Shown here: piece after piece, positions 1-26,757 of the stretch | Layout of the letters: every line of letters starts with the position of its first letter | Position numbering within the stretch: position 1 is the first letter of the stretch | Virus record (IMG/VR): IMGVR_UViG_3300048048_000041 | Location: 1-27,834 of that record | Source: a virus | DNA length: 27,834 nucleotides | Direction: 5' to 3' (one strand) | Program-made: the position numbers and the translations under genes | Notes under the pieces: model-generated | Database searches by the model: none | Seen by the model: only the letters and a program-made list of their open reading frames with translations | Told to the model about the DNA's origin: nothing

Positions 1-480
1 CTAAGCGGACTTCTCGCTGTGTTTATCAATAAAGGCCTGGAGTTCTTCGATTTTGCGATTGAGGGCAGACAGTGGTTCGCCTGAGCGGCTGCGTGCCGCG
101 CTCTTGTTGCGCCGTTTCAGATGCTCGTTGATGAGATCGCACACGGCAGCACACCCTTTGGCCTTGGCAAGCGTGAAGGGCAGATCGCCCTCGGTACGCG
201 CAAAGGGATCAGCGCCGTGCTCAAGCAGGTACTCAACGATTTCGGTGCGACCAGACTCACTGGCAACATGCAGTGGCGTATACCCATGCTCACCATGCTT
301 GTTGACTTCGATACCGCCTTCAACAAGAAGCCGCACACCTTCGAGATCGCCCCAGCGCACTGCTACATGCAGGGCGTTATCGCCCAGCGCATTGACCGTC
401 CCGATTCCGTCGAACCGGACATGCTGGAACTCCGGTGTGCCAGCCACCTTTTCCAGCAAGGCTTCAATCCTGCGATCCAT
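1..480 (-). CDS. Small ankyrin-repeat protein
   Basis: A 159-aa protein with two clear ankyrin repeats, roughly residues 33-62 and 66-95. The signature is visible as NALHVAVRWGDLEGVRLLVE and then YTPLHVASESGRTEIVEYLL, followed by a degenerate third repeat near 98-120. The C-terminal 40 residues are basic and then helical. Ankyrin repeats bind protein partners, and the target here cannot be told. There is no signal peptide or membrane segment, so it is probably cytoplasmic. The ATG at 480 is preceded by a GGGGA Shine-Dalgarno-like stretch and the stop is at the first bases of the window. It is separated from the phage late operon by about 560 bases, so it could be a host flanking gene or a phage accessory gene. 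The family call is firm; the role is unknown. Confidence 0.85.
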   Translation of the reverse strand: MDRRIEALLEKVAGTPEFQHVRFDGIGTVNALGDNALHVAVRWGDLEGVRLLVEGGIEVNKHGEHGYTPLHVASESGRTEIVEYLLEHGADPFARTEGDLPFTLAKAKGCAAVCDLINEHLKRRNKSAARSRSGEPLSALNRKIEELQAFIDKHSEKSA

Positions 481-5586: not shown

Positions 5587-6744
5587 TCAAACCCTCCGTT
5601 TGACCGGCAGGGCCGAGACCCGCAGATCATTGATGTAGCCTGCCTTGCCGGTGAGCTGCAAAGAGAAGGCGAAGTGCCGCCCGCGCAGCCCTCGGCCCAG
5701 CTGGAAGCGGCCAGTGGTAAGCGTGTCGGCAGGCTTGGCGGGCAACTGGTAGGTGTAGGCGACTTTGCTGCCGCCCTGTGTCTGGCTGACTGTCATGCTG
5801 GCGCTGCCATCAAGCTCATAGGCAAGATAGGCATCGGTGAGGTGCGCGAGCTGGCCCTGCCCCACATCCAGCAGCCCGGTGGTTAGTGTGGCGGTGATGG
5901 TTTCGTCTTCTCCGTCGAGGGCATAGACGCCGTCTTCACCGGTGGCGCAGATCACGCCATTGATCACGGCAAGCGAGGTGAAGTCGAAGGGCTCGTAGCG
6001 GCTCATGGCCCAGTTGGTGGTGTTGGCCGTCCAGGCCACGGCACGGCGCGGCTGCATGCCGCTATCGCCGGCATCCATCCAGTCGTACACAAAATCCCGC
6101 GCCGCCAGGTGCTGGCTGACGCTGCTGGTGCCGCTCGCGCCACCCCACAGCTGTTCGCGGGCGCGCAACATTCCCGTGGTGGCATCGGTCGCCTGGAATG
6201 AGTCGCCAAGGCCATGAGAGGTGCTGACGGCGGAGAAGCTGGCATCAGTCGCCAGTGCGGTGTCTGCCACCATCGACTGTGCCGCCTGCCAGGCGCTATC
6301 AGCAAGCGTGGCCTGCTCGGCCAGGGCACTCGCCATCTTCCGCTGTGCCAGCACCGCATCCACGGCCACAGCGGAATCAGTGCTCGTCTGCAGAGTGGTG
6401 CTATAGGCGATGGCGTCACTGATGACGGCGCGATCTTCATGCATCACGCGTAGTGCCGGCAACGCCTTGTCACGCACACTGCCCTGCTCTTTCACGAGAT
6501 TGGCCGCCGCCAGATGGCTGGGCACGCTGCTGGCTGCAGTGGCAGTTTCGACAAACAGGCTGAGAACGGCGTCGCTAAGGCTTTCACTAGCGACGGCGGC
6601 ACCGCCATCGTGAGCCACGAGCAGACCAAAGAGCAGCACACCGGCAAGGCTGGCCGCTTCTTCAGCCAGAACGATGAATCCGCCCCAGCTGCTGTCCCTG
6701 GCTGCGGCGCCATCGGTGTTGTCGTCGCGATAGGTACTACTCAT
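5587..6744 (-). CDS. Phage tail-associated structural protein, Ala/Ser-rich N-terminus and beta-rich C-terminus
   Basis: A 385-aa protein. The ATG at 6744 follows AGGTG at suitable spacing and overlaps the upstream stop by eight bases; a GTG at 6753 is the alternative. Residues 1-200 are Ala/Ser/Asp-rich, helical and repetitive. Residues ~215-385 are beta-rich, with GVYALDGEDETITATLTTG and a closing segment RGRHFAFSLQLTGKAGYIND. That ending resembles domains at the ends of virion surface proteins in related prophages, from memory and without a search. Stop and next start are separated by two bases, so it is co-translated with the 631-aa helical protein. No catalytic residues are evident. Confidence 0.55.
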   Translation of the reverse strand: MSSTYRDDNTDGAAARDSSWGGFIVLAEEAASLAGVLLFGLLVAHDGGAAVASESLSDAVLSLFVETATAASSVPSHLAAANLVKEQGSVRDKALPALRVMHEDRAVISDAIAYSTTLQTSTDSAVAVDAVLAQRKMASALAEQATLADSAWQAAQSMVADTALATDASFSAVSTSHGLGDSFQATDATTGMLRAREQLWGGASGTSSVSQHLAARDFVYDWMDAGDSGMQPRRAVAWTANTTNWAMSRYEPFDFTSLAVINGVICATGEDGVYALDGEDETITATLTTGLLDVGQGQLAHLTDAYLAYELDGSASMTVSQTQGGSKVAYTYQLPAKPADTLTTGRFQLGRGLRGRHFAFSLQLTGKAGYINDLRVSALPVKRRV

Positions 6745-9460
6745 TGATGACACCTATGAAATGATGGGCGGATTTGTGATCGGCCAGTGCGGAGTAGCCC
6801 CAGTGCACACGCTCGCTGCTGCCGGCCGTCTCCGATACATTGGCATAGGTGACGCTGCCAAATAAAACCCTAGAGGCGTCACGATAGAAAAGCGAACCCG
6901 ATTCATCCGGTGAAGGCGTCCAGTACCAGTTCTCCGGCTTCACCGAGAGCGTCTGCTCCCGCGCCGGGAAACTCAGCTTCAGGGCACTCGATTCGGTGCT
7001 GCCGCTTTTCGTGGTCGTCGAGTATTCCTTGACGTTCGGCGTCGAGCCGCCGCCACTCTCCCAATGCTCGTTGGCTTTAGGATGCACGATGTAAGTGATG
7101 TCTGCCGGCAGTGAGAGCCACGGCCCGTTATCGGCAAAATCACTGCAACCGCCTGGACTGTAGCTCTCCATGCTGGCCCACACCGGGTTTTCATCCTTGG
7201 GGTAAGGGTCACCACTCATCACCTCAATTTCTCCAATCCACCGGAAAACAAAATCCCAGGTCCAGAAACGGTAGCTATAGGGATCCTGCACAGAGCCCAA
7301 CTGCACGCTCTTGGTAACACTGCCCCCCGATGTTGATTCGCGCTTGGCATACAGCAGCGCATTGCGGCACAGGTAAGGTACGCACACTGCTAGCCCCAGA
7401 CCATACCCCTTGGTGGTCGTCTCAGTAGTGGTGTGCTGGTAGTGGCGCGCCCGCGTGAGCTTTCCAATGCGATAAAAGAAGCCATCGTATGCAAAGCTTG
7501 GCGTGGTGTCGTAGCCCAGATCCTTGCCGACGATGGTCGTCACCGTCGAGGTGTTTGCGGCCATCTTGCGGTCATCAAAATCCGTGGTGTAGAAGTTGCC
7601 CATCGGCACCTTGGCCGTGGTGTAGACCGTTTCCGTCCATGAGCCCACGATCATGCAATCATCAAAATCGTTCTCCGATGTGGTGCTGGAACTGTCCGGG
7701 TCGTAGAAATACTTCACCACCTTGAGCGTATCGCCGATGTAGTAGCCGTACATGATGGTGTCGCATTTCAGGTTGCCACCCGAGCCGATCATGGGCAGAA
7801 AGTCATGCGAAACACAGCCCCCCAGTGCCGGCTCAGGAAATTTGAACTGCGGCGCGTAATCCGAGGTGGAAGGCGTCTTGTTGTAGAGCCAGCCCCGCGC
7901 AACCTGCGTGATGCTGGCCGTGTGGGTGGCGATGGGGTCAAGTTCCAGGTTGTCCCAGTAATCCACTTCGGTGCTGGTGACCTGGGTGACGGACTTGGCC
8001 CGCGCCAGCAGATCGGCGGCGCTCTTGCGTCGCCACTTGTATTTGATGGCTTCGTAGCGCGAGGCGAGCGAGGTGTCGGTGGTGGCGCTGCTGCTTGAGG
8101 AAGACCCGCCACTGCCAGAATAGGAAATGCCGCCGCTACTTGTGCTGGAGGGTGATGTGGAGGCGCTGCTGCCGGAGGCGTTCTTCGCGAGACTGGCGCC
8201 CATCAGCCTGTAGAGCGCTGCCAGGTAGGCAGTCACCACAGCGCGATCCTGCGCATCGTCGTATTGCAGGTTGGCAGGCAGGCGGCCGTTGTAATCCGCC
8301 TTGCCATAGCTGATGCGAAGCGTGTAGGCGAGGCCGTAGGCATAGCCGGTGCCGTCCTCATCGTAGTCGTAACAGGTATTGAAGGCTTCTGTGGCTTTGG
8401 CGTTGAACGACCAGCCACAGGCCGTGGAATACGCCGTGTGCGTGTAGAACTCATCGGCAGCGCACAGCTTGATGATCACGCCAGCCCGCCGCCACGCCTC
8501 GAATGCGCCTGAAATTGTGGGGAAGCTCTCGCCGCTGGGCATGGCGCCGAAGCGATCCAGAATGGCAAGGATTTCCTGATCGCCCGCTTTCTCGATGTAA
8601 GCCCGGAACGCCTTGGTGGCCGTTGCCGGCACGATGGGCAGCGGCATCGCGTACACGCCGCCAGACTTGATGCGCAGCAGCCAGGGGGCGCCAGCGGCAT
8701 CAAAACCCACACCGTGGGTCTGAATGAATTTGTAGTCGAACTGAAACTGCCCATTCTGCGGTGGTACGCCGGAATAGCCCGGCAGGTGCGTGTTGCCCAA
8801 CTCACGGCGGATGGCATCCATCACATTCGCAGGAATCACCATGCGCGCCTGCTCGACTGGATTGGCTTTGGGCAGGCTGGCGAGATCCTGCCGCCCGTAG
8901 CCCCCCACTATCTGCATCACCTCCGCCATCGCGCCGGAATACCAGGTCGGGCGCTGGCGCACGTACTGGGTATAGGTCACGCTGGATTCCGGCAGATTCA
9001 GCGCGGGGTCCAGCTCCTGCACCATCTCGTTGAACTTGATCACGAAGCGCTGCAGTCTCTGATCCTTCGCCGGCAGCGCCTCGTCACGCTTCGGGTAACC
9101 GGCAATCCGCCGCCGTGTCTGCGTGCTCAGGCGCAGGCCCACACCGCCATTGTCAGTCATTGAGGCAGCCGTCACCACACCGGAGAAGAGCATCGGGATG
9201 TAGCTCTTCGCCGTGGTGTCCGTCACTGCCTGCGCGGCCGCCACCGGCTGCTGCACAATGGCGCGCAACACGCCACCGATGCTCTGCACAATCACGCTGC
9301 CACCACCGGGCAGCGTGCGCACCATCTTCATCGACGGCAGCCCGCCAGCCTGCTGCAGATTGGAGAGCCGCCGCACCTGGGAGTCTACGGCAGCCAGATC
9401 CTCCTGCCCCAGCTCGCCTCCATCCGGCACAAACAGCCCGTAGGGCCGCGCGGACAACAT
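6737..9460 (-). CDS. Very large phage tail-associated protein, function unknown
   Basis: A 907-aa protein with a start four bases after the preceding stop. Residues 1-80 contain a short helical region (AAVDSQVRRLSNLQQAGGLP). Residues ~100-420 look globular and mixed alpha/beta. Residues ~424-462 are a Ser/Gly/Thr-rich low-complexity linker. The C-terminal half (~470-907) is rich in Tyr, Trp, Thr and Ser with many aromatic beta-like stretches, which is typical of virion surface proteins. Position between the fibre/nozzle genes and the helical ejection-type genes suggests a tail or baseplate component. No family was recognised. It is intact and has the GC-rich composition of its neighbours. Confidence 0.55.
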   Translation of the reverse strand: MLSARPYGLFVPDGGELGQEDLAAVDSQVRRLSNLQQAGGLPSMKMVRTLPGGGSVIVQSIGGVLRAIVQQPVAAAQAVTDTTAKSYIPMLFSGVVTAASMTDNGGVGLRLSTQTRRRIAGYPKRDEALPAKDQRLQRFVIKFNEMVQELDPALNLPESSVTYTQYVRQRPTWYSGAMAEVMQIVGGYGRQDLASLPKANPVEQARMVIPANVMDAIRRELGNTHLPGYSGVPPQNGQFQFDYKFIQTHGVGFDAAGAPWLLRIKSGGVYAMPLPIVPATATKAFRAYIEKAGDQEILAILDRFGAMPSGESFPTISGAFEAWRRAGVIIKLCAADEFYTHTAYSTACGWSFNAKATEAFNTCYDYDEDGTGYAYGLAYTLRISYGKADYNGRLPANLQYDDAQDRAVVTAYLAALYRLMGASLAKNASGSSASTSPSSTSSGGISYSGSGGSSSSSSATTDTSLASRYEAIKYKWRRKSAADLLARAKSVTQVTSTEVDYWDNLELDPIATHTASITQVARGWLYNKTPSTSDYAPQFKFPEPALGGCVSHDFLPMIGSGGNLKCDTIMYGYYIGDTLKVVKYFYDPDSSSTTSENDFDDCMIVGSWTETVYTTAKVPMGNFYTTDFDDRKMAANTSTVTTIVGKDLGYDTTPSFAYDGFFYRIGKLTRARHYQHTTTETTTKGYGLGLAVCVPYLCRNALLYAKRESTSGGSVTKSVQLGSVQDPYSYRFWTWDFVFRWIGEIEVMSGDPYPKDENPVWASMESYSPGGCSDFADNGPWLSLPADITYIVHPKANEHWESGGGSTPNVKEYSTTTKSGSTESSALKLSFPAREQTLSVKPENWYWTPSPDESGSLFYRDASRVLFGSVTYANVSETAGSSERVHWGYSALADHKSAHHFIGVINE

Positions 9461-9464
9461 GTGA

Positions 9465-10046
9465 TCAACCCGCCGAGAGCGTCAGCCGATAACCGATATC
9501 GTAAGTATCGCCATCCTGAAAGGTGCGCGGCGAAGCGTATCTGGTGGCAGACAGCAAGGTGCCGGTAGTACCACCACGCACAGCGCTGGTCAGGAGCGCA
9601 GCGCCCGTCACCGTGAGCGAACCCGTGGTCGCCATCGTCACGCTGGCCACATTGCCCGTATTGTCGATCGCCGAAGTACTGCCCGCATCAGTGGGCTTCC
9701 ACACCGGGCGGGTCGCCGCCGTGTAACCCTCCGTCAAGCTCACCACCTCCCCGGCCACCGAGGCAAACTGCGCAGCCGTCCACGAAGCCGTCGGCGCCGT
9801 AGAACCGGAAAACAGCGCAATATAGAAAGCCGTCGGCTTGGCCACGCTCCCCAGAGCAACATTAAGGATGTAGACCAGACCTTCGGTTACAATAAGATTT
9901 CGGGTACGCTCCCAGGCGCCGCCGTTGATGCGGTCGATATACTCACCGCTGGCCAGCACCCCAGGGCGGGGAAAGAAAATACCTTCGTCGGTCTGGTCAA
10001 AACACTCGACGGCCAGCTCGCGGGAAAGTTCGGTGCGCAGATTCAT
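9465..10046 (-). CDS. Phage structural protein, 193 aa
   Basis: The ATG at 10046 (MNLRTELSRELAV) has GAGGAG about ten bases upstream and is preferred to the in-frame TTG at 10067, which would include that site in the coding region. The N-terminal 55 residues lead into a segment with RNLIVTEGLVYILNVALG and FYIALFSGSTAPTASWTAAQ, then a Thr/Ser/Ala-rich beta domain. Similar proteins of this style are common in phages as virion components, from memory. The small 135-aa protein at 23302-23709 has a comparable plan (KVYLIDSG against FYIALFSG). After the cassette insertion this is the first late gene on the left side, so it needs either read-through or its own promoter. Confidence 0.6.
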   Translation of the reverse strand: MNLRTELSRELAVECFDQTDEGIFFPRPGVLASGEYIDRINGGAWERTRNLIVTEGLVYILNVALGSVAKPTAFYIALFSGSTAPTASWTAAQFASVAGEVVSLTEGYTAATRPVWKPTDAGSTSAIDNTGNVASVTMATTGSLTVTGAALLTSAVRGGTTGTLLSATRYASPRTFQDGDTYDIGYRLTLSAG

Positions 10047-10091
10047 GATGGATGGGCTCCTCGGCAATTTGGGATCAATGAAGACCCGACC

Positions 10092-10120: not shown

Positions 10121-10318
10121 ACCCTACAGGGGCAGCACCATCCCTCCACCCGAATTGTCCGGCAGGCTACCGGGCAGTTGCGTAAGGCTGCTGGATGGGC
10201 AACACTGCACAGCAGGCGACAGCATGCAACCCGAGCAGTGCCGGGCCAGGCGCCACACTTAGCTCGCGCAGGCTCAACCTACCGACAATCAAGCCCGGAA
10301 GACCAATTTCCACCAGCC

Positions 10319-11608
10319 ATGCTCGAACGATACCGAGTCAGCACCGAAAATCTGCTGAGAAAACTGCTTTCTGGCCATCTGGCACGCAGCACAATCAAAA
10401 CCACGGCAGTATTCGGCATGCGCCTCGCCGCCCAGGCCACCACGCTGATTTTCCTGGCACGCCTGCTTGGCCCGGCTCAATTCGGCGAATTTTCTTCCAT
10501 TGCCGCGTTAGCTGTATTGATGGGAACACTCTCCACACTCGGAACCCATCTGGTTCTGCTGGGTGAAACGGCCATCAAGCCGTCTAACCGAGATACGATC
10601 CTGCCCTTCGCAATTCCGACAACGCTTGTCTGCGGCACAACCCTGTTTGCCCTCTACAGCCTGTCTGTCATTCACTTTATCCAGCCAAACCTCGTGACAT
10701 GGACAGTTGTCAGCGCGATTGGCATCACAGAGCTGGTCGTTCAACCGCTGATCTATCTGGCCTGCGGAGAACTTCAGGGGTTGGATCAATCACCACTATC
10801 GCAGACGCTGCTCAATATTCCCCTATTCTTTCGGGCGGGCTTGCTAGGGCTGATGACCATCGGCCAGATGGGAAACGTCCTTCAGGCTTATGCCATCAGT
10901 TACCTGATAATTTCTACACTCACGATTGTCTTCATTCAACATTGCCTACCTGCGAAATGGCCTTCTCCGCAGAACTGGAGATTGCCTAAAACCCACGAAA
11001 TCCAGAAAGCGGTGGGTTACTCATTCTTATCACTCAGCAGCAGCGGTACATCGGAAGTCGACAAAACCCTATCTCCTGTCCTCATTGGCACCACCAATGC
11101 GGGGCTCTATATTATTGGTACACGCATACTCAGCGCCATGGCACTGCCGATAGGCGCACTGGCAATATCGGCCATGCCCCGCATTTTCCGAAGCCACGAA
11201 GCAAACACAGGCCTTGGCTCTCTGCAAAAACGGATGTTCATCGCCTCACTTCTCTACGGCACGGTAGTGGGCGTGGCCTTGTGGCTGTGCGCGTCCTTCT
11301 TCGTCAGGATACTGGGGCCTCATTACCAGAACCTGCCTGACACACTCTCCTGGATTGCATTTGCCTGCCCAGCACTCTGCTTTCGCTACATATCAGGAAC
11401 ACTTCTCGTAGGAATCAACCGGCCATGGCTACGCAGCGGCGGCGAATTCATGGGGATTGCCATCTTTATTCTGAGTGCGCCATTGCTCACCAGCATGTTG
11501 GGCTACCAGGGTTTCCTCCTCGCTCTGGTACTCAGCGAGTGGTGTATGGCAGTGGCAACCGGGCTGATATTGGCGAAATGTAAAAGCCAATCAACATCGA
11601 TTTCCTGA
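10319..11608 (+). CDS. Wzx/MATE-type polysaccharide flippase
   Basis: A 429-aa polytopic membrane protein from ATG 10319. An in-frame GTG-type extension to 10178 would add 47 polar residues unlike the family, so it was not used. No clear Shine-Dalgarno site precedes either start. About a dozen hydrophobic segments are visible. The N-terminal pattern (IKTTAVFGMRLAAQATTLIF, LARLLGPAQFGEFSSI) is typical of polysaccharide biosynthesis/O-antigen flippases that move undecaprenyl-linked oligosaccharides across the inner membrane. It is the first gene of the plus-strand cassette, 32 bases before a GT4 glycosyltransferase. The substrate is unknown. Confidence 0.85.
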   Translation: MLERYRVSTENLLRKLLSGHLARSTIKTTAVFGMRLAAQATTLIFLARLLGPAQFGEFSSIAALAVLMGTLSTLGTHLVLLGETAIKPSNRDTILPFAIPTTLVCGTTLFALYSLSVIHFIQPNLVTWTVVSAIGITELVVQPLIYLACGELQGLDQSPLSQTLLNIPLFFRAGLLGLMTIGQMGNVLQAYAISYLIISTLTIVFIQHCLPAKWPSPQNWRLPKTHEIQKAVGYSFLSLSSSGTSEVDKTLSPVLIGTTNAGLYIIGTRILSAMALPIGALAISAMPRIFRSHEANTGLGSLQKRMFIASLLYGTVVGVALWLCASFFVRILGPHYQNLPDTLSWIAFACPALCFRYISGTLLVGINRPWLRSGGEFMGIAIFILSAPLLTSMLGYQGFLLALVLSEWCMAVATGLILAKCKSQSTSIS

Positions 11609-12960: not shown

Positions 12961-13995
12961 TTGATCTTGGTAACTGGTGGTAGTGGCTTTTACGGCGGTT
13001 TGCTCAAGGAACGTCTGCTAAAAGAAGGGCATCAGGTCATAAACGTCGACCTCTGCCCAGATGAATTCACGCATCCAAACCTGATCTCGTATAAAGGAGA
13101 TATACGGGATGCCGATTTCATTGAAAAAGAGGTCTTCGCTGCCCATCCAATTACGGCAGTCTTCCACTGCGCAGCCATCCTGGCTCACGATGTAAGCGAT
13201 GAAAGCTTTCTGTGGACATCTAACGTTAACGGAACGCGCGTGGTGGCTGAAGCCTCTGCGCGGCACAATGTAAAGCACCTGGTATTCACTTCCTCAAACT
13301 GTCTGTGGGGGCAAAACCTGGGGCGCGCCGTACGCGAGGACGACGAACCTTCACCCGTTGAGATCTATGGCCGATCCAAGCTCGAAGGGGAGAAAATCCT
13401 CCGAACATTCGAAGACCGATTGAACGTAGTTATCTTCCGCTGCCCGACCATTGTCGAAATGGGGCGCCTGGGTCTTCTTGCCATCCTGTTCGAATTCATC
13501 TCGGAAGGGCGTAAAACCTGGGTTGTCGGAGGGGGTGACAATCGCTACCAGTTTATCTACGCACAGGATCTTGCAACGGCCTGCATTCTGTCATTGAGTC
13601 TGGACCATTCAGATCTGTTCAATATCGGCTCCAATAACGTCAAGACGTTCAGGGAGGTGTACGAACACGTCATTTCCCATAGTGGCACAAAAGCAAGAGT
13701 TGCAAGCCTGCCACGCGGATTGACCCTTCTTGTTATGCAGATTGCTTACCGGCTAGGCTGGTCTCCACTCGGGCCATACCAGTACAAGATGATCGCCGAG
13801 AGTTTTGTTTTTGATACCTCACACCTCAGAAGTACATTGAATTGGTCGCCCACGCTGACCAACGAAGAAATGCTTCTGCGTGCCTACACGTACTATTTTG
13901 AGCACAAGGCAGAAATTGAATCTCGCACCGATGCCTCAGCCCATCGTCGCGGAGCGCGAATGGGGATAATCCGTCTCCTGAAATGGCTATCATGA
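12961..13995 (+). CDS. NAD-dependent sugar epimerase/dehydratase (extended SDR)
   Basis: A 344-aa protein starting with TTG at 12961, supported by a strong AAGGAAGGA Shine-Dalgarno stretch about eight bases upstream and by the protein beginning directly at the first beta strand. The Rossmann glycine motif TGGSGFYGG is at 5-13, an acidic residue (Asp30) ends the second strand and favours NAD, GDIRD is near 46-50, TSSN is at 110-113, and the catalytic YGRSK is at 136-140 (Tyr136, Lys140). Enzymes of this type remodel nucleotide sugars or 3-beta-hydroxysteroid-like substrates; in this cassette a nucleotide-sugar role is likely. The C-terminal ~25 residues are basic and hydrophobic. The stop overlaps the next start as ATGA. 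Confidence 0.88.
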   Translation: MILVTGGSGFYGGLLKERLLKEGHQVINVDLCPDEFTHPNLISYKGDIRDADFIEKEVFAAHPITAVFHCAAILAHDVSDESFLWTSNVNGTRVVAEASARHNVKHLVFTSSNCLWGQNLGRAVREDDEPSPVEIYGRSKLEGEKILRTFEDRLNVVIFRCPTIVEMGRLGLLAILFEFISEGRKTWVVGGGDNRYQFIYAQDLATACILSLSLDHSDLFNIGSNNVKTFREVYEHVISHSGTKARVASLPRGLTLLVMQIAYRLGWSPLGPYQYKMIAESFVFDTSHLRSTLNWSPTLTNEEMLLRAYTYYFEHKAEIESRTDASAHRRGARMGIIRLLKWLS

Positions 13996-14402
13996 ATTTC
14001 CTTCGTACCTACTTTAAAAGCATTCTCATGTACGGTGTCGTGGTAAGCGGAACAGCCGCACTAGCAGAATGGTCTTCATTCGCATGGTGCGTGTATAGCA
14101 TGGGAATGCAGTACGTACTGGCATCCATCCTGGCATTTATCGTGGGTACATCGGTCAACGCCATTTTGTCCAGATACCTCGCTTTCAACTCACGAGGGCG
14201 CACAGGTACTCAGGAAGTTATTTTTATCTATCTGACCAGCGCAGTGGCTTTTTTTCTCAATGTTGCCGCAATGATGTGTATTGTAGAACTGCTGCACCTG
14301 AACATCATGCTAGGAAAAATAGCCGGAACAATCATGGCCTTTTTTGCCAACTACCTGCTCCGTCAATTTTTTATTTTTAGTGCGGAGCCTCGCTGGAAGT
14401 AA
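13992..14402 (+). CDS. GtrA-family small membrane protein
   Basis: A 136-aa protein. ATG 13992 forms an ATGA overlap with the epimerase stop (13993-13995), indicating translational coupling; ATG 13983 in frame is the alternative. Four transmembrane segments are visible at roughly 11-32, 36-60, 74-97 and 105-128. The C-terminal NYLLRQFFIF matches the family's closing pattern. GtrA proteins are proposed to flip bactoprenol-linked sugar in phage O-antigen modification and act in other cell-wall glycan pathways. Classical sets are gtrA-gtrB-gtrC; here no GtrB-like GT2 enzyme follows. Confidence 0.85.
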   Translation: MNFLRTYFKSILMYGVVVSGTAALAEWSSFAWCVYSMGMQYVLASILAFIVGTSVNAILSRYLAFNSRGRTGTQEVIFIYLTSAVAFFLNVAAMMCIVELLHLNIMLGKIAGTIMAFFANYLLRQFFIFSAEPRWK

Positions 14403-14496
14403 ACTCAATTGATTTCACTGACCTGGGAATCGACGCAGCAACCCGGTATTCACGCCCATCGGTCATCCATTTTTGTTACGCCTGATCTTCAGAAGA

Positions 14497-14625
14497 ATGA
14501 GCGACTCCATGTTTAATCACAAATCCTCCACGACTAACCGCTCAGCTCCCGATACACTCAGTTCAACGCACAAGAGCAAAAATCGGAACGGCGACATTAT
14601 TTATGCTTTAATCATATTTAATTGA
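14497..14625 (+). CDS. Possible 42-aa small ORF in the gap before the 722-aa gene
   Basis: An ATG at 14497 preceded by AGAAGA opens a 42-codon frame, polar for 34 residues then ending in a short hydrophobic run (DIIYALIIFN). It lies in the 269-base gap 14403-14671, which otherwise shows only an AT-rich upstream region with an AATAAT hexamer at 14628-14633. No family is recognised. It may be chance. Confidence 0.2.
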   Translation: MSDSMFNHKSSTTNRSAPDTLSSTHKSKNRNGDIIYALIIFN

Positions 14626-14671
14626 TTAATAATTTTTAAACATTGAGCTTCAGAAAAATTTATTTCTAAAA

Positions 14672-16840
14672 ATGCCCAATCAAAACACCAAAGCCCACAA
14701 GGCGCTGCAGATGTGCTTTGTCCTGCTCCTTGCAGCTTGCTGGCTTGTGCAAGACACCTATACCGGTATTCACCAAGATTCCTTCCTTTATAACTTTTTG
14801 GCATTACTTCATCAGATACCAGAAAATTTTAGGCACGATCTTTTCATGGAGTTCGGTGGACAGGGAAACTATACCTTGTTCCCTACACTCTACCGTCATT
14901 TTGTGTCTGTTTTAGGGTTGCAAACGGCGGCTCTCGCCTTGACCATTGTGGCGAAGCTGGTGTACTTTGCCGGTCTGATCTGTCTGATCCGACGTCTGGT
15001 GGGGCCTTATTGGATAACGTGCCTGGCTGGCGTTATTCTAGTGTCACCGTATTATGATGGGTTTAAAGTTTTTCTTTATGCATACTCTAATCTGACGCCG
15101 CGTATTTTCGCAGAAGCCCTTTGTCTGTTTTCCTTGCGGATCCTTTGGGATCGGCACTATGGCGCCGCAGCACTACTCATTTGTTGTGCGGGCGCCCTGC
15201 ATCCCCTCATGACGACAGTGGGCGGACTGCTGCTATGTCTGACCCTTGTAACAGACACGGCTTTTAGCGTGCGTATCAGGCTATCCATTGCACTAGGCGG
15301 CATAGTGGCTGGCGCAGCACTGCTTCTCTCTGTAGTGGGGATTGATGCCATACGACCTCAGCTTGATGAACGCTGGGTCAATATCATGAGCCTTACTGGC
15401 AACGCCTATCAGTTACCCGACAAATGGAACTTTGATATGGGGTGCAAACCCCTGTATTTCATGCTGATACTAGGTCTAGCGCATTATCTTCGCCTGATCG
15501 ACGGCAAGAGAGTGATGTGGTGCCTTGTAGTCAGCGTTTTACTACTACTAGGGGTCTGGATTGTCGGCAGCGGGGTCCTGCGGAATGCATTCATTACGCA
15601 GTTGCAGCCATGGCGTGGATTATGGCTGCTCCAGATTGTCGGCATCATTCTGAATGTCCGGCTGCTGCTCGTTCTCTGGCAGGGAAGCGTGCCACAGCGC
15701 TGGGCGGCCACATTGCTCACCCTGGCTTTTTTCAATATTGGCTTTCTAGGACTGCACGTCACACCGTCGGCGGCACTGTTTCTCGCCATCAGCGCTTGCG
15801 TACTGTGGGCGCTGCTGTCGCGGGTGCCATCGCAATATTTTGAAACCCGCACAATGCGTTTGCTGCCATGGGTAGTCATTGCGCCGCAATGCGTAGCCTA
15901 TCTGCAATCCGTGGTGGAGCTTTGGATTCTTGTCGTACCAATCCTGTTTTATGCCCTGGTACGCTGCGCCAGTGCCCGTGGCGTGATCACTGCTGCGTGT
16001 GCGCTGCTGGCGGTCGGGATGGCGCCTCTCGTGGGCGAGACGATGATGCCACTCAGTTCCATGATCTGCTTCCTGATCTGGATGGCAGCCACCGATCACA
16101 AGCATCCACTGTGGGTGCGTTCCCCGGTTAAAGCCTTTCTGCTAGTGGCTTTAGGCGTGCTATGCGCACAGGGTGTGCCTGATTTTCTGGCTCTTTTCGA
16201 GAAAGAATTCGAAAAGACCATCTTACCAGCACTTGGTGACTCAATGCAGACCACAGAGCTGATGGTGCTCGCAGCCTGTGGTGTGGCTTTTTTCTGGATT
16301 CGCCATAAATGGCAGCCACCTTACGAAAAGGTGCTCCTCCCCTTGCTGGGGCTGGCCACCTTTACCGGCGCCTTTAACTTCTGGTTGCCAACCCAGGCAC
16401 AACTCTCTGCCTATAATCAGCCATGGGCTGATGCCTTGCAAAGCAGAATTCCCAAGGATGCGGTAGTACTCAGTGATCGTGGCGTGGATTGGAGCTGGTT
16501 TGTACTGCATCGCAGCTTTTACGAAAGCAACGTGCAACTTTTTGGGCCGGTTTTCTCGCGGAGAACCGCCACCGAAGGCTACCGGCGGCGCCTGTTCCTT
16601 TGCGGAATTGATGGCGATTTCTGTCTCCATGTCACTTCAGCGTTTGGCCAGGACGGTACCCACGTGCTGACAGACCCGGATATCGGCAGGATCTGCTCAG
16701 ATCGCGCACTGGATTTCCTGGTGCTGCGAGGCCGTTATCGGGACAGCATCGAGGTGGTAGCGGATTCGTCTGGCCAGCCCAATTCCCTGATTGCCTGCGC
16801 CCCACTACGCAGCACAGAGCGGCTATCGAAGACCCCCTGA
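14672..16840 (+). CDS. Large polytopic membrane protein, GT-C glycosyltransferase-like
   Basis: A 722-aa protein. ATG 14672 lacks a Shine-Dalgarno site; an in-frame ATG at 14711 (residue 14) is preceded by AAGG and is a possible start. The first membrane segment at ~12-27 is followed by an acidic periplasmic-type loop containing TYTGIHQDSF, reminiscent of the acidic loop of GT-C enzymes. About fifteen further hydrophobic segments extend to ~590. The final ~140 residues are soluble, with IPKDAVVLSDRGVDWSWFVL and a cluster FSRRTATEGYRRR. GT-C enzymes transfer sugars from polyprenyl-phosphate donors outside the inner membrane, which would suit a GtrC-type role next to GtrA. That role is inferred; the specific family was not identified. 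Confidence 0.6.
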   Translation: MPNQNTKAHKALQMCFVLLLAACWLVQDTYTGIHQDSFLYNFLALLHQIPENFRHDLFMEFGGQGNYTLFPTLYRHFVSVLGLQTAALALTIVAKLVYFAGLICLIRRLVGPYWITCLAGVILVSPYYDGFKVFLYAYSNLTPRIFAEALCLFSLRILWDRHYGAAALLICCAGALHPLMTTVGGLLLCLTLVTDTAFSVRIRLSIALGGIVAGAALLLSVVGIDAIRPQLDERWVNIMSLTGNAYQLPDKWNFDMGCKPLYFMLILGLAHYLRLIDGKRVMWCLVVSVLLLLGVWIVGSGVLRNAFITQLQPWRGLWLLQIVGIILNVRLLLVLWQGSVPQRWAATLLTLAFFNIGFLGLHVTPSAALFLAISACVLWALLSRVPSQYFETRTMRLLPWVVIAPQCVAYLQSVVELWILVVPILFYALVRCASARGVITAACALLAVGMAPLVGETMMPLSSMICFLIWMAATDHKHPLWVRSPVKAFLLVALGVLCAQGVPDFLALFEKEFEKTILPALGDSMQTTELMVLAACGVAFFWIRHKWQPPYEKVLLPLLGLATFTGAFNFWLPTQAQLSAYNQPWADALQSRIPKDAVVLSDRGVDWSWFVLHRSFYESNVQLFGPVFSRRTATEGYRRRLFLCGIDGDFCLHVTSAFGQDGTHVLTDPDIGRICSDRALDFLVLRGRYRDSIEVVADSSGQPNSLIACAPLRSTERLSKTP

Positions 16841-16898: not shown

Positions 16899-17041
16899 GT
16901 TGCGGCAGAACGGCTTCTGGGAAGAATCTGTCACGTGGTACGTCGCTGCGTAGCAAGCGTAGAGAGACGCCTGCGGCTTTCTCAACATACGCCATTAGCA
17001 TACTCTATCATCCTATTTTGTAGGGAGGCAAAGCGAACAAT

Positions 17042-17061
17042 GAGCGGAAGCGAATTGCACC
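17042..17061 (+). repeat. REP-like repeat copy A
   Basis: A 20-base match to the consensus GAGCGNNAGCGRATTGCGCC with one deviation (GCACC end). It is preceded by AAT like the other copies. Confidence 0.6.
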
Positions 17062-17113
17062 TTTCGCGTCTACCCAACCTGCTTCACCGCGCCAGCGTAA
17101 GGAATGCGCGTTC

Positions 17114-17134
17114 GGCGCAATTCGCTCATCGCTC
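17114..17134 (-). repeat. REP-like repeat copy B (inverted)
   Basis: On the minus strand this reads GAGCG, four bases, GCGAATTGCGCC, one base longer in the variable centre than copies A and C. Its inverted orientation relative to A and C is the arrangement seen in REP clusters. Confidence 0.6.
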
Positions 17135-17200
17135 ATTGGCACCCCACATTATTGGCATGACAATCGATTCGTAGATTGCGCCGCGCCAGCGGGAATAATG

Positions 17201-17220
17201 GAGCGTAGCGGATTTGCGCC
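17201..17220 (+). repeat. REP-like repeat copy C
   Basis: GAGCGTAGCGGATTTGCGCC matches the consensus and its last eight bases form the left arm of the hairpin at 17213-17248. Confidence 0.6.
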
Positions 17221-17248
17221 GACCAAGCCTCCGCCCGGAGGGCGCAAA
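17213..17248. repeat. Strong nested hairpin
   Basis: The outer arms TTTGCGC(C) at 17213-17220 and GGCGCAAA at 17241-17248 enclose an inner stem CCTCC/GGAGG (17228-17232 and 17237-17241) with loop GCCC. One side has an internal bulge. No T-run is present on either strand. It lies 89-124 bases downstream of the nozzle-like gene stop, so it could act on either convergent transcript. Confidence 0.6.
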
Positions 17249-17336
17249 CCATCAGATAGCGAATCATTCAGTAACGGCACCGACTCATGCGACATCACCC
17301 GATTATCACAATGCCCGTCGCTACGCGGAATGGCAA

Positions 17337-18524
17337 TCAGGCGCACACCACCCTATCCCCAAACACTACATTTTTCCCAGCAGCACCAGCGATGTCCGCA
17401 AGGCGCCGACCGCTCGTTTCCACCAGCGTCCCCACCGCCGTGCCCATCACAAAACCATTCTCCGCGAGCCACAGCGCCGTGGCCTGACCGCCCTGCGATG
17501 CATCAGTGCCAGCGATTTGCGCATCAACCAGAATGGCACTCCCAGGCACCGGAGGACGTGCCTTGCGTGGCTGCACTTCAAGCGCATCAGGCGAATTGCC
17601 CGCCAGAAAGATGACGTGATCGGCCTGCCCCACCCAGATTCCACCATCCACCGGAGCGACAAAGGTGATGCGCTGGGGCATCTGGATGAAGCCATGGCGC
17701 GCATCATGCAGGTGGTAAGCCAGCGCTTCCGAGAAGTTCAGGATGTTTCGTGTAGCCGTCAGGAGCCGCCCGCGCCAGTAGGCCAGATAGCGCCCTGTGG
17801 GCATCGGCTCCAGGTGGCGGAACTGTGCAGCGGCGCCAGAGGCAGACAACAGCGGCAGGCTGATTTGCGGGGTGGCGACAGGATAGTCTTCACCACGCGT
17901 GAATTCACCACCATTCTGGCTCGTAAAGTAAAGACGCACACGTTTGACCGTGGCATCCAAGCAAAGCGGGCAGGTTATGCCCAAGCCACCGGCTTCCTGC
18001 AGCGTCACGAAGGTGGCTTCTGAAACGGCCGATTCCGTCTCGCCACGTAGCCAGGAGAGCGCCACGCCGTAGGTGCCCGGTTCCAGGCTGCCTTCCTGCG
18101 TAACCTGCACCATCGGTGAGGGTGGCGTATCCAGCGTGAAGCGGTATGCGCTGCCACCATCAAAGGTAAAAAGTCCTTCGGGGCCGGCAACGATAACCTG
18201 ACCGTTGAGCGCGATGTGGCTGACAGGATCATCGCCAATCGTGGCGAGCGTCTGGGTGGTCCAGCTCTGCGTATCCACACGTACCCAATCCCTGCCCTGC
18301 GTGGCAAAGGTGTCGCCGAACAGTTCGCTGTGCCAGAGGTTATCCAGCCGCAGACTGCTCACGCGCCGCAGGCCTGGGCGCAGGCGCGCACGGCCATCGT
18401 CGGAGATGTCGAGATTGACGGCATCGCGCACGTAGAGGCGCGGGGCATCGCCACCGATCTGCAGGGCGGCGTCATCATCTTCGGTATCAATGCCCGCGAG
18501 CGGACCAATCTGGATGTCTGTCAT
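17337..18524 (-). CDS. Phage nozzle/tail-stabilisation-like beta-propeller protein
   Basis: A 395-aa protein whose ATG overlaps the upstream stop as ATGA (18521-18524). The N-terminus carries NLDISDDGRARLRPGLRRV at ~38-56, a pattern I associate with P22 gp10/T7 gp12-like tail proteins that sit below the adaptor. The rest is beta-rich with repeated blades, including RYLAYWRGRLLTATRNILNF near 245-265 and GIWVGQADHVIFLAG near 295. It should form the distal short-tail channel and plug packaged DNA. Assignment rests on pattern and context and could instead be another beta-propeller tail protein. It is the last late gene before the antisense cassette. Confidence 0.6.
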   Translation of the reverse strand: MTDIQIGPLAGIDTEDDDAALQIGGDAPRLYVRDAVNLDISDDGRARLRPGLRRVSSLRLDNLWHSELFGDTFATQGRDWVRVDTQSWTTQTLATIGDDPVSHIALNGQVIVAGPEGLFTFDGGSAYRFTLDTPPSPMVQVTQEGSLEPGTYGVALSWLRGETESAVSEATFVTLQEAGGLGITCPLCLDATVKRVRLYFTSQNGGEFTRGEDYPVATPQISLPLLSASGAAAQFRHLEPMPTGRYLAYWRGRLLTATRNILNFSEALAYHLHDARHGFIQMPQRITFVAPVDGGIWVGQADHVIFLAGNSPDALEVQPRKARPPVPGSAILVDAQIAGTDASQGGQATALWLAENGFVMGTAVGTLVETSGRRLADIAGAAGKNVVFGDRVVCA

Positions 18525-21354: not shown

Positions 21355-22149
21355 TTAGGCAAAAGCGCCGGCAGCCAAGCGGGCGTGCAGTGCTACGCGG
21401 TCAGCGGACAGGCAGGTGTTGTAGAACGCAATCTCATCAATGATGGCTGTCCCAACGCTATCAGAATATGGGTCTGTCAGCACGCCACCATAGGATCTTG
21501 CTACTGTCGATAATGTGGTGGCAGACGCTACCTTTGCTACTGGCGTGCCATTGATATATAGAACGGCTGTACTGCCGTTGTAGGTAGCTGCTACATGCAC
21601 CCAATCGTAAAGATTCAAATTAACAGGCGCCTGCACGTATGCCCCGGAAGCAGCGCTGGAGAAGAAACAAAGCGATGGCGCAAACCTACCATTGTCGCAG
21701 ATGCGGATGCCAAAGCGGTTTATGCCTGAACTCGATGCCGAGGAGAATTCAAACAATGGAAAGTAGGAGGTTGTCGAGAACAGCTTCGCCATGCCTTCCA
21801 TCGTGATATTGTTGCCCACAGGAAAGACCGACCACAGGGTAGCCGCAGGAGTGCCATATATACCGGCGCCATTATTTGACATACCTCTGTCGCTACTCGC
21901 CGAAAGCCCTCCGCGCATTGGCATCATGCTGCCACTTAAAGTCAGATAGTTCCCATTCCCGCTGGCATCTGGAATTTTCGTGGTTCCATATTCCTCATTG
22001 AATCGCCAATAGGCAACCGGATTGTCGGCCATCACTGCGGCGGCATAGCGATCAGACTCAAATGCCGTTTTGATGTTGGTCAGGTTTGTATCCATCTCGT
22101 CATGCGTGAGTGGAGTCCCCTTACCGGCCCGAGTAATTATGCTGACCAT
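21355..22149 (-). CDS. LamG/concanavalin-fold phage receptor-binding-type protein (copy 2)
   Basis: A 264-aa protein with a strong GAGAGGGG site before ATG 22149. The N-terminus has the phage fibre signature KGTPLTHDEMDTNLTNIK (10-27). Residues ~38-250 fit a LamG_3-like jelly roll: VAYWRFNEEYGTTKIPDASG at the start, WVHVAATYNGSTAVLYINGT near 185-205, and IIDEIAFYNTCLSADRVALH at the end. Such domains bind carbohydrate or protein and are used in phage adhesins. It is paralogous to the adjacent 261-aa protein: ends are conserved and the middle differs. It is slightly less GC-rich than its neighbours. Confidence 0.8.
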   Translation of the reverse strand: MVSIITRAGKGTPLTHDEMDTNLTNIKTAFESDRYAAAVMADNPVAYWRFNEEYGTTKIPDASGNGNYLTLSGSMMPMRGGLSASSDRGMSNNGAGIYGTPAATLWSVFPVGNNITMEGMAKLFSTTSYFPLFEFSSASSSGINRFGIRICDNGRFAPSLCFFSSAASGAYVQAPVNLNLYDWVHVAATYNGSTAVLYINGTPVAKVASATTLSTVARSYGGVLTDPYSDSVGTAIIDEIAFYNTCLSADRVALHARLAAGAFA

Positions 22150-22158
22150 AATCCCCTC

Positions 22159-22944
22159 TCAGACAGATGCGCCGGCAGCCAGCCGCGCATGCAGCGCAAT
22201 ACGGTCTGCAGTCAGTGCTGTACTGTAAAGCGCCAGATCACTGAAATGCCCCGTCGCTGACGGGTCCCCCCAGTTATCCTTTCCCATTCCACCAACAGAA
22301 CGCACGGCGGCAGTCATATAGCTGGCGGCAGCCACACTCACAGCCAGCGACCCATTCACGTAGATCATGAGATTGGCCCCATCGTACACAAGCGCCAGGT
22401 GATGCCATTCGTAGAGCGGCAGACTGAAGGGGACAACCGGCTCGACCATCGCAGCGCTGGCGCTCCACAGGCGAGCACGTGGCACATTACCGCGCCAAAT
22501 CAACATGAGCCCGCTGATGGCGCTGCTCTGTGCGATTCCAATGCCGAATATCTGGGAGAAATCGGCCCCGCTTGCGTCAAATCTCGCCAGCACCTCAATG
22601 GTGAATTTCCCTGTGTCTGCAAATCCGGCTGCGCTGGACGGCATACTGAACATCCCGGAACTGCCCATGTATCGCGCTAGCCTGCCAGCCCCCAAGGCCG
22701 GGTACTGCTGGGAGGTACTTGCTGAGGTAGCATCCCGCCCGTTGCCAGATGAGTCTGCAAGAGCCGTTGTGCCATACGCCTCATTGAGCCGCCAATACGC
22801 ATAAGGCACATCTGCCAGAACGGCAGCCGCGTAGTGATCTGCCACGGCAGTCTCCACCGCCGCTTTCAGGTTCGTGAAGTTCCCATCCAACTCCGCATGT
22901 GTCAGCGGAGAGCCCTTCGCGGTTCGCGTGACAATATCGACCAT
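22159..22944 (-). CDS. LamG/concanavalin-fold phage receptor-binding-type protein (copy 1)
   Basis: A 261-aa paralogue of the next gene. The N-terminus is KGSPLTHAELDGNFTNLK. The LamG body runs from YAYWRLNEAYGTTALADSSG through YEWHHLALVYDGANLMIYVN to the shared end LYSTALTADRIALHARLAAG. The start at 22944 has only a weak AGGA very close to the ATG, so coupling to the gene nine bases upstream (stop at 22951) is likely. Role inferred: virion surface adhesin or fibre tip, with two specificities offered by the pair. Confidence 0.8.
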   Translation of the reverse strand: MVDIVTRTAKGSPLTHAELDGNFTNLKAAVETAVADHYAAAVLADVPYAYWRLNEAYGTTALADSSGNGRDATSASTSQQYPALGAGRLARYMGSSGMFSMPSSAAGFADTGKFTIEVLARFDASGADFSQIFGIGIAQSSAISGLMLIWRGNVPRARLWSASAAMVEPVVPFSLPLYEWHHLALVYDGANLMIYVNGSLAVSVAAASYMTAAVRSVGGMGKDNWGDPSATGHFSDLALYSTALTADRIALHARLAAGASV

Positions 22945-25461: not shown

Positions 25462-26757
25462 TTACTGACGCTCGCCGATGATGGGCACAGCCGTATCCAG
25501 CGCCATGACACCGTAATCCGTAAACTGCTTGCCGGCCCCCGTATCCACCTCGAAGCGAATCTTGCTGGTGCCACGGATCGTGCCGATCAGCAGCTCCACC
25601 TTGTCCTTGTGGTCCAACTGCACTTCCGACCAGAAGAACGGGATGCCGCTCTTGTCAGAGGCTGCGAGAGCTTCGGCCACGGCCTGCCCACCAAGCAGGA
25701 TGGCGCGGTCGATGGCGTACTTTGAACCGAAGGCTTCCGGCACCGTGACAGAGGACTCGCTATCGCTATCGTAAGCAGCGCAATACTTGATCGTGTCGCC
25801 AGCGTAAAAGCGGATCGGCTTGGGCATCTTGATGATCAGGATACCGTTCCACAGCCCGGCTTCACCGAGGAACAAGGGATGCTGGTTGGCCTGCGAAGCG
25901 CGTGCGATAGCCGAGGCCTGCAACTGGCGGAAGCTCGTGTCAGTGGCAAACGAGTTGTACTGGGCCGGGGACACCAGCAGCACACGCAGCGGGCTATCAG
26001 AAGCGGCCTTGTCGCCCTCGAAGATCACGGCTGGCGGCGGCAACGTCACCTGTTCCAGTGTGGTGCGTAGCGCATCGACCACATCCATCTTCAGAAGATC
26101 GGTGGTGGCCACATCCAGCGCGCCACTCCCAACGGCATCCACAAACGGACGAATGCTGTCGGCATCTGCGATGAAGTGACGGTTGCGTGTCGGCGCCTTC
26201 ACGGCGTTCACCAGAATCTCATCAAAATCCACATCCGCATCGGTTGGCACCACCCAGTCGATATTGTTGTGGTAGCCACGGGCGCCTGCCATCTGCACGA
26301 ACAGCGACTGGTCGATGTAACGATCCATCAGCGATTGCGCAATCGGGCGGCCCAGCGAGCGCAAATCCACCGGATTGCGGATCGAGGTCATTGCGTCCCC
26401 CAGATCAATCGGGAAACGGGCCTGATTCACGCGCAGGCGCCCCTCCGAAATGCCGATCCCGGTGCCGCGCCCCTCGGCCTGCCGGCTGCCCATGATGGGC
26501 TTGGCTCCCACCGGATTGACGAGGTGGAAACTCACCTCATCGCCCTTCTGCTTGGTCAGATCCTGGCAACGCACGATAGGCATCGTTGCCGAACTTTGCT
26601 TGCGGATCGTTGCCTCGGCGCCCGCCGTGCCCTTGGGCATCTTGCCGGTCAGCCGCGCAATCGTGCTGTTACGCTGCATGTGGGCGGCAAACAAGCCCAC
26701 CGCCTGCTGGATCATATTGGTACTGTCGCCATAGGCGGCATGTGTCTTGGTAGCCAT
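25462..26757 (-). CDS. Major capsid protein, DUF4043/N4-gp56 type (HK97 fold)
   Basis: A 431-aa protein with a GGAGAG site before ATG 26757. The pattern RKQSSATMPIVRCQDLTKQK then GDEVSFHLVNPVGAKPIMGS, followed by the Gln/Arg-rich stretch VNQARFPIDLGDAMTSIRNP, matches the DUF4043 capsid family. The C-terminal region (SKYAIDRAILLGGQAVAEAL) is also typical. It builds the icosahedral head after a scaffold-like protein encoded just upstream. Length is as expected and the gene is intact. Confidence 0.9.
   Translation of the reverse strand: MATKTHAAYGDSTNMIQQAVGLFAAHMQRNSTIARLTGKMPKGTAGAEATIRKQSSATMPIVRCQDLTKQKGDEVSFHLVNPVGAKPIMGSRQAEGRGTGIGISEGRLRVNQARFPIDLGDAMTSIRNPVDLRSLGRPIAQSLMDRYIDQSLFVQMAGARGYHNNIDWVVPTDADVDFDEILVNAVKAPTRNRHFIADADSIRPFVDAVGSGALDVATTDLLKMDVVDALRTTLEQVTLPPPAVIFEGDKAASDSPLRVLLVSPAQYNSFATDTSFRQLQASAIARASQANQHPLFLGEAGLWNGILIIKMPKPIRFYAGDTIKYCAAYDSDSESSVTVPEAFGSKYAIDRAILLGGQAVAEALAASDKSGIPFFWSEVQLDHKDKVELLIGTIRGTSKIRFEVDTGAGKQFTDYGVMALDTAVPIIGERQ

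What the first reader, a model, noticed from the sequence alone, without database searches (positions are those of the whole stretch)
13992..16840. GtrA paired with an unfamiliar 722-aa GT-C-like protein, without GtrB
Classical phage serotype conversion needs GtrA, the GT2 enzyme GtrB and a specific GtrC. Here GtrA is coupled to an epimerase and followed by a large membrane protein with an acidic first loop and a soluble C-terminal domain, plus a GT4 enzyme and a flippase upstream. This may be a variant system in which the epimerase-modified sugar is loaded by GT4 or by a host GtrB.
Basis: partly seen in the sequence, partly recalled or inferred. Interest (0 to 1): 0.65.

Follow-up and report, generated by a model that had tools for sequence, protein, structure and literature searches.

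The report
Phage sugar-transfer cassette, pilin-linked enzyme family
A prophage carries a surface-sugar-modifying gene set whose large membrane enzyme belongs to an unnamed bacterial family that often sits right behind type IV pilus genes, so the prophage may be sugar-coating the pili that phages of this kind grab, but this is untested.

Summary
GtrA (13983-14402, PF04138) overlaps an SDR epimerase and is followed by a 722-aa polytopic membrane protein. No GtrB-like gene was found in the window. The genes lie in a 7.3-kb insert between two structural genes of an F116-like prophage; 10 of 12 relatives with both flanks have 41-97 bp there.

The 722-aa protein matches no Pfam, PHROG, NCBIfam or PDB entry. 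It belongs to an unnamed family, mostly of Rhodocyclaceae. Of 44 bacterial loci examined, 28 have GtrA within 3.5 kb, 25 of those without a GT2, and 30 have a UDP-galactopyranose-mutase-like flavoenzyme. So GtrA plus this protein without GtrB is common in the family.

Twelve of 44 loci have a type IV pilin gene upstream on the same strand (0 of 45 control loci). F116 is reported in print to use type IV pili. Best reading: lysogenic surface conversion with a host-made lipid-linked sugar. The bold reading is pilin glycosylation that blocks superinfection.

Against: the phage protein's closest relatives are not pilin-linked. The GT-C fold was not shown: models failed and profiles gave no match. 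A sister prophage with the same enzyme lacks GtrA and the epimerase, so these are not obligate partners.

The parts
9465..10067 (-). F116-like structural gene (phrog_8123), left border of the insert
   Evidence: 96% identical to the sister prophage, 48-64% to 10 other F116-like phages
10178..11608 (+). Wzx-like flippase (Polysacc_synt, just under Pfam cut-off)
   Evidence: E 6.8e-6, 26.2 bits vs cut-off 28.2; 53% identical in sister prophage L002
11641..12723 (+). GT4 glycosyltransferase
   Evidence: PF00534 1.1e-29; only a 3' remnant in L002
12961..13995 (+). extended SDR nucleotide-sugar epimerase/dehydratase, TGGSGFYG and YGRSK motifs intact
   Evidence: absent from sister cassette
13983..14402 (+). 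GtrA-family flippase (alternative start 13992, ATGA overlap with epimerase stop)
   Evidence: PF04138 5.8e-17
14672..16840 (+). 722-aa polytopic membrane protein, proposed periplasmic lipid-sugar-dependent glycosyltransferase; invariant D36, D56, HP177-178, D232, Q312, W314, R315, C675, C709
17016..17251 (.). dispersed repeat also found in the MAG of the sister prophage, at the right end of the insert
17337..18524 (-). head closure Hc3 (phrog_8040), right border of the insert

Best explanation
The insert is a lysogenic-conversion cassette of an F116-like prophage. The 722-aa protein most likely acts as a periplasm-facing glycosyltransferase. It would take one sugar from a polyprenyl-phosphate carrier that host GtrB-type enzymes load and GtrA moves across the membrane, and put it on a surface molecule of the lysogen. 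The epimerase would change which sugar is loaded, or its configuration. The flippase and GT4 are probably left over from, or belong to, a separate lipid-linked oligosaccharide step. Shown: gene content, site, conservation, selection, and family linkage to GtrA, UGM-like and pilin genes. Inferred: GT activity, carrier, sugar, acceptor, and effect on phage adsorption.
For: The genes sit in a 7.3-kb insert (6.7 kb in the sister) between the same two structural genes; 10 of 12 phages with both flanks have 41-97 bp there. They run against the structural genes and have lower GC. The 722-aa gene is under purifying selection, dN/dS 0.20. Of 44 bacterial family loci, 28 have GtrA (E<1e-15) within 3.5 kb and 25 of those have no GT2. 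Thirty of 44 have a flavoenzyme whose sampled member is related to UDP-galactopyranose mutase (PDB 4dsg, E 7e-18), i.e. sugar-donor chemistry. The first-loop acids D36 and D56 are invariant in 19 members, as expected of GT-C enzymes (PMC11127046 passages). The sister prophage's host has GtrA-GtrB pairs.
Against: No structure: pLDDT 34.8 and 43.8 for the C-terminal part. The family profile does not match PMT_2 GT-C enzymes (0.3-0.4% probability; positive controls 99.8-100%) or any PDB chain. The sister cassette lacks GtrA and epimerase. The window's own host and its GtrB are unknown. The prophage may be a remnant: in the sister contig it covers about 27 kb between chromosomal genes.
Confidence: 0.6

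Rival explanations
1. Pilin glycosylation (a sub-case of the best explanation that names the acceptor): the enzyme puts sugar on the host's type IV pilin, masking the receptor that F116-like phages use, and so excludes competing phages (works like TfpW/TfpO).
For: 12 of 44 family loci have a prepilin gene upstream on the same strand, 10 of them within 100 bp; 12 pilin ORFs in 171 kb near vs 2 in 480 kb far, p 6e-6; 0 of 45 control loci vs 8 of 19 family loci at +-1.5 kb. All 12 lie in the tree half (31 rows) that holds the phage pair, none in the other 21 rows (Fisher p 7e-4, not corrected for kinship). F116 uses type IV pili (PMC6024842 passage). TfpO and TfpW glycosylation blocks pilus phages (PMC11841053 passages). 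The sister host MAG has 31 N-methyl prepilin matches.
Against: No pilin gene in either phage cassette. The nearest relatives (two copies in G001 outside this prophage, one on plasmid pVF1) are not pilin-linked. The branch joining the phage clade to pilin-linked L051 has only 93/85 support. The receptor of this phage is unknown.
Confidence: 0.3
2. Classical O-antigen (or other polysaccharide) conversion, with the 722-aa protein as a divergent GtrC and the flippase/GT4 as helpers.
For: Wzx-like flippase, GT4 and epimerase lie in the same insert; GtrA-GtrC type conversion is the best-known phage use (recalled; PMC11127046 passages); a flippase is kept in both prophages.
Against: The acceptor-like neighbours seen in the family are pilins; recurring O-antigen operon neighbours were not looked for beyond GtrA, GT2 and flavoenzyme profiles.
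Confidence: 0.3
3. A decayed cassette in a dead prophage with no present function.
For: GT4 is a remnant in L002; the sister prophage region looks partial and is flanked by chromosomal genes.
Against: All five cassette ORFs are intact in the window; dN/dS 0.20 for the enzyme.
Confidence: 0.12

Closest known systems
gtrA-gtrB-gtr(type) serotype conversion of Shigella/Salmonella phages
   Same: phage-borne GtrA followed by a large membrane protein with conserved acids in the first loop
   Different: no gtrB; an SDR epimerase is coupled to gtrA; the membrane protein has no Pfam hit; family members are linked to pilins and UGM-like enzymes
TfpW / TfpO pilin glycosyltransferases of Pseudomonas aeruginosa
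   Same: relatives of the enzyme lie just downstream of a pilin gene; a UGM-like (furanose-type) enzyme is often beside them, and TfpW adds arabinofuranose (PMC11841053 passage)
   Different: homology to TfpW not tested (sequence not held); the phage copy has no pilin gene beside it
Three-component pentofuranose systems (GT136, PMC11127046)
   Same: charging enzyme, flippase and membrane GT with C-terminal domain
   Different: GtrA instead of a MATE flippase; no phosphoribosyltransferase seen among the cassette's Pfam hits; no sequence match tested to GT136
Phage F116 (Hollowayvirus)
   Same: same structural gene order; 43-59% identity in three flanking proteins
   Different: F116 has no cassette at this site

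Membership tests
Classical gtr serotype-conversion cluster | gtrA present | tested here: met
   PF04138 E 5.8e-17
Classical gtr serotype-conversion cluster | gtrB (polyprenyl-phosphate sugar synthase) in the cluster | tested here: not met
   no GT2 ORF in the window with the GT2 profile
Classical gtr serotype-conversion cluster | type-specific GtrC changes O-antigen | not testable with these tools
   needs glycan analysis
GT-C glycosyltransferase superfamily | polytopic, 7-13 TM helices | tested here: inconclusive
   simple hydropathy count gives about 12 segments for the window protein and 14 for L002 (profile)
GT-C glycosyltransferase superfamily | conserved acid in first periplasmic loop | tested here: met
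   D36 and D56 invariant in 19 members; side of membrane inferred
GT-C glycosyltransferase superfamily | GT-C fold or profile homology | tested here: inconclusive
   models unusable; profile vs PMT_2 negative; no PDB match
TfpW/TfpO-type pilin glycosyltransferase | gene beside a type IV pilin gene | tested here: not met
   not met for the phage copy; met in 12 of 44 bacterial relatives
TfpW/TfpO-type pilin glycosyltransferase | sequence homology to TfpW or TfpO | not tested
   their sequences were not at hand
F116-like phages | shared structural gene set and order | tested here: met
   Hc3, phrog_8123 and the 907-aa protein in the same order in F116, 8P, Y7, Y11 and six IMG/VR relatives

The most novel reading that the evidence does not exclude
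A prophage of a pilus-using phage group carries a captured member of an unnamed, pilin-linked glycosyltransferase family and uses host lipid-linked sugar to decorate the host's type IV pilin, turning a bacterial pilin-masking defence into a prophage superinfection-exclusion device. The bacterial form (pilin, enzyme, GtrA, UGM-like flavoenzyme) would be a new furanose-type pilin glycosylation system without GtrB nearby.
Probability: 0.27. Interest if true: 0.8.

Novelty: new variant of a known kind. Interest (0 to 1): 0.55.

Why it matters
Phage-driven conversion is known for O-antigens. A phage-borne enzyme from a pilin-linked family would extend it to the pilus, a major phage receptor. Independently of the phage, the recurring set of pilin, membrane enzyme, GtrA and UGM-like flavoenzyme in Rhodocyclaceae and relatives has no Pfam family for the enzyme and gives a concrete, testable candidate for a new pilin glycosylation pathway.

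Tried and rejected

GT-C by sequence: hmmscan of 19 members, PDB profile and hhalign against 9 PMT_2 proteins gave nothing; family-half and PMT_2-half controls worked. A first hhalign run was repeated with cleaner input. Of 12 PMT_2 and 12 MFS loci fetched, 9 and 8 proteins passed the length filter and were used.

More phage relatives: the 722-aa protein, a relative from G001 and a 105-base motif pattern found none in viral contigs; tblastn found none in phage records.

Epimerase relatives: 0 of 297 genomes at E 1e-50; the cut-off was too strict to mean absence.

The worry that GtrA hits in long ORFs were shadow frames was checked: all loci counted have E below 1e-20; L095 (8.8e-9) was not counted.

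Rows dropped: 6 of the 34 genomes (G014, G073, G075, G076, G186, G210) matched only short stretches and were not fetched. Order and class searches (12 of 399, 2 of 369) used a stricter cut-off, 1e-20. The 44 loci are 31 from 28 family genomes, 11 from order genomes, 1 from a class genome and 1 plasmid.

Papers: passages only were read of PMC11841053, PMC11127046, PMC9284122, PMC6024842, PMC3564109 and PMC5836110. Searches for a phage-encoded pilin glycosyltransferase or for this gene set showed none in the listings (listings and abstract starts only).
Full report
What is there. The window is an IMG/VR virus record of 27,834 bases. Its minus-strand genes are an F116-like structural module: major head protein 25462-26757, Hc3 17337-18524, phrog_8123 9465-10067, and a 907-aa protein 6737-9460. 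Between Hc3 and phrog_8123 lies a plus-strand insert of 7,272 bp: Wzx-like flippase, GT4, SDR epimerase, GtrA and the 722-aa protein. Ten of 12 F116-like phages with both flanks have 41-97 bp there. These are 8P, F116, Y11, Y7 and six IMG/VR contigs; the two exceptions are the window and the sister prophage. L112 has only one flank and is not counted.

Sister prophage. One genome contigs locus encodes a 78%-identical 722-aa protein, in MAG 'Rhodocyclaceae bacterium UBA1310' (L002 = G001). The window's first and last bases both align with that contig, with long blocks at 89-93% DNA identity (L166, L067) and 87-92% (L002); short stretches within and the insert's interior do not align. In the contig this region is flanked by chromosomal genes: ZnuA on one side; an acetyltransferase, a CitMHS-type transporter and PmbA/TldD on the other. 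So it is an integrated element of about 27 kb there. I saw no terminase or portal gene in the contig, but I only looked at ORF lists and selected Pfam scans. The two inserts differ. L002 keeps a flippase (53% identity) and the 722-aa enzyme, has only the 3' end of GT4, lacks epimerase and GtrA, and carries a methyltransferase and a GT2 on the other strand. Homology resumes 3 bases before the enzyme's start. dN/dS of the enzyme is 0.20 over 722 codons; flanking 907-aa protein 0.07, Hc3 0.22.

The enzyme family. Relatives occur in 34 of 297 genomes of the MAG's family (28 after dropping six short partial matches), 12 of 399 of its order and 2 of 369 of its class (order and class at E 1e-20, both counts including G001). 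A 30%-identical copy stands alone on Vitreoscilla plasmid pVF1 among cobalamin genes. In 19 aligned members, D36, D56, Q64, HP177-178, D232, W235, Q312, W314, R315, C675 and C709 are among the invariant positions. No Pfam model, PHROG, NCBIfam model or PDB sequence matches.

Neighbours. I examined 44 bacterial loci (52 family proteins of 450+ aa in all, with the two phage ones). GtrA (E<1e-15) lies within 3.5 kb in 28, a flavoenzyme in 30, a GT2 in 5; 25 of the 28 GtrA loci have no GT2. The flavoenzyme matches PF01593 and, for the one member compared with the PDB, UDP-galactopyranose mutase (4dsg, E 7.2e-18, residues 156-501). A prepilin gene lies upstream on the same strand in 12 of 44 loci. 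By position, 12 pilin ORFs occur in 171 kb within 2 kb of the enzyme and 2 in the other 480 kb (p 6e-6; one of those two is L061's, separated from the enzyme by the flavoenzyme gene). Control loci have none: 0 of 12 PMT_2, 0 of 12 MFS, 0 of 15 GT2 and 0 of 6 GtrA (the last two sets from G001 only), against 8 of 19 family loci of like size. Two different pilin types are involved, PilA-like and a 220-230-aa type.

Tree. In a 52-row tree the phage pair is one clade (100/100), sister to two G001 copies outside this prophage (L049, L050; 100/99), then pVF1 (91/55), then pilin-linked L051 (93/85). All 12 pilin-linked rows fall in the same 31-row half as the phage pair; none falls in the other 21 rows. 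The phage enzyme's closest relatives are therefore not pilin-linked, which weakens a direct transfer of the pilin role.

Mechanism. By established knowledge of gtr systems (recalled; also PMC11127046 passages), GtrA moves a polyprenyl-phosphate sugar and a GT-C enzyme uses it outside. Here the loading enzyme is missing. G001 has GtrB-like genes next to GtrA at two places and a flavoenzyme beside one of them, so a host-made donor is plausible for the sister; the window's host is not known. The window shares a 236-bp dispersed repeat with G001 at 81-84% in the two copies scored; the other 12 of 13 matching genomes (297 searched) show only short stretches. This hints at a near relative as host.

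Acceptor. Pilin is the acceptor suggested by neighbours in about a quarter of the family loci. F116 is listed among phages that use the type IV pilus (PMC6024842 passage; Pemberton 1973 seen as a reference title only). TfpO and TfpW glycosylate pilins and protect from pilus phages (PMC11841053 passages). O-antigen or another glycan remains equally open for the phage copy, given the flippase and GT4.

What could not be shown. The GT-C fold: both models are too poor to use, and profile comparison with PMT_2 is negative while controls work. Sugar, carrier, acceptor and phenotype are all inferred. Co-transcription of GtrA with the enzyme is not shown; 270 bp lie between them, and promoter and terminator scans were no better than chance.

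Verdict. The more interesting point is that GtrA plus this enzyme without a nearby GtrB is common (25 of 44 loci) in an unnamed family that is linked to pilins in 12 of 44 loci.

Noticed in passing
window 17016-17251: A 236-bp dispersed repeat just after the enzyme gene, with several copies in the sister prophage's MAG (two scored copies 81-84%) and only short matches in 12 other genomes of 297.
   Followed up: partly
window 21355-22149 and 22159-22944: Two tandem Laminin_G/ConA-like lectin-domain proteins in the structural module.
   Followed up: no
window 1-480: An ankyrin-repeat protein at the left end of the element.
   Followed up: no
window 1 and 27834: The record starts and ends exactly at gene ends, as if a provirus call had been trimmed at genes; the element may extend further.
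   Followed up: partly
L166:3926-5383: A membrane protein weakly like GT87 (under the Pfam cut-off) lies near the end of the sister prophage region.
   Followed up: no
L053, L060, L064, L066, L087, L094, L098: Recurring bacterial gene set: pilin, unnamed membrane enzyme, GtrA, UGM-like flavoenzyme; a candidate pilin glycosylation pathway in its own right.
   Followed up: yes
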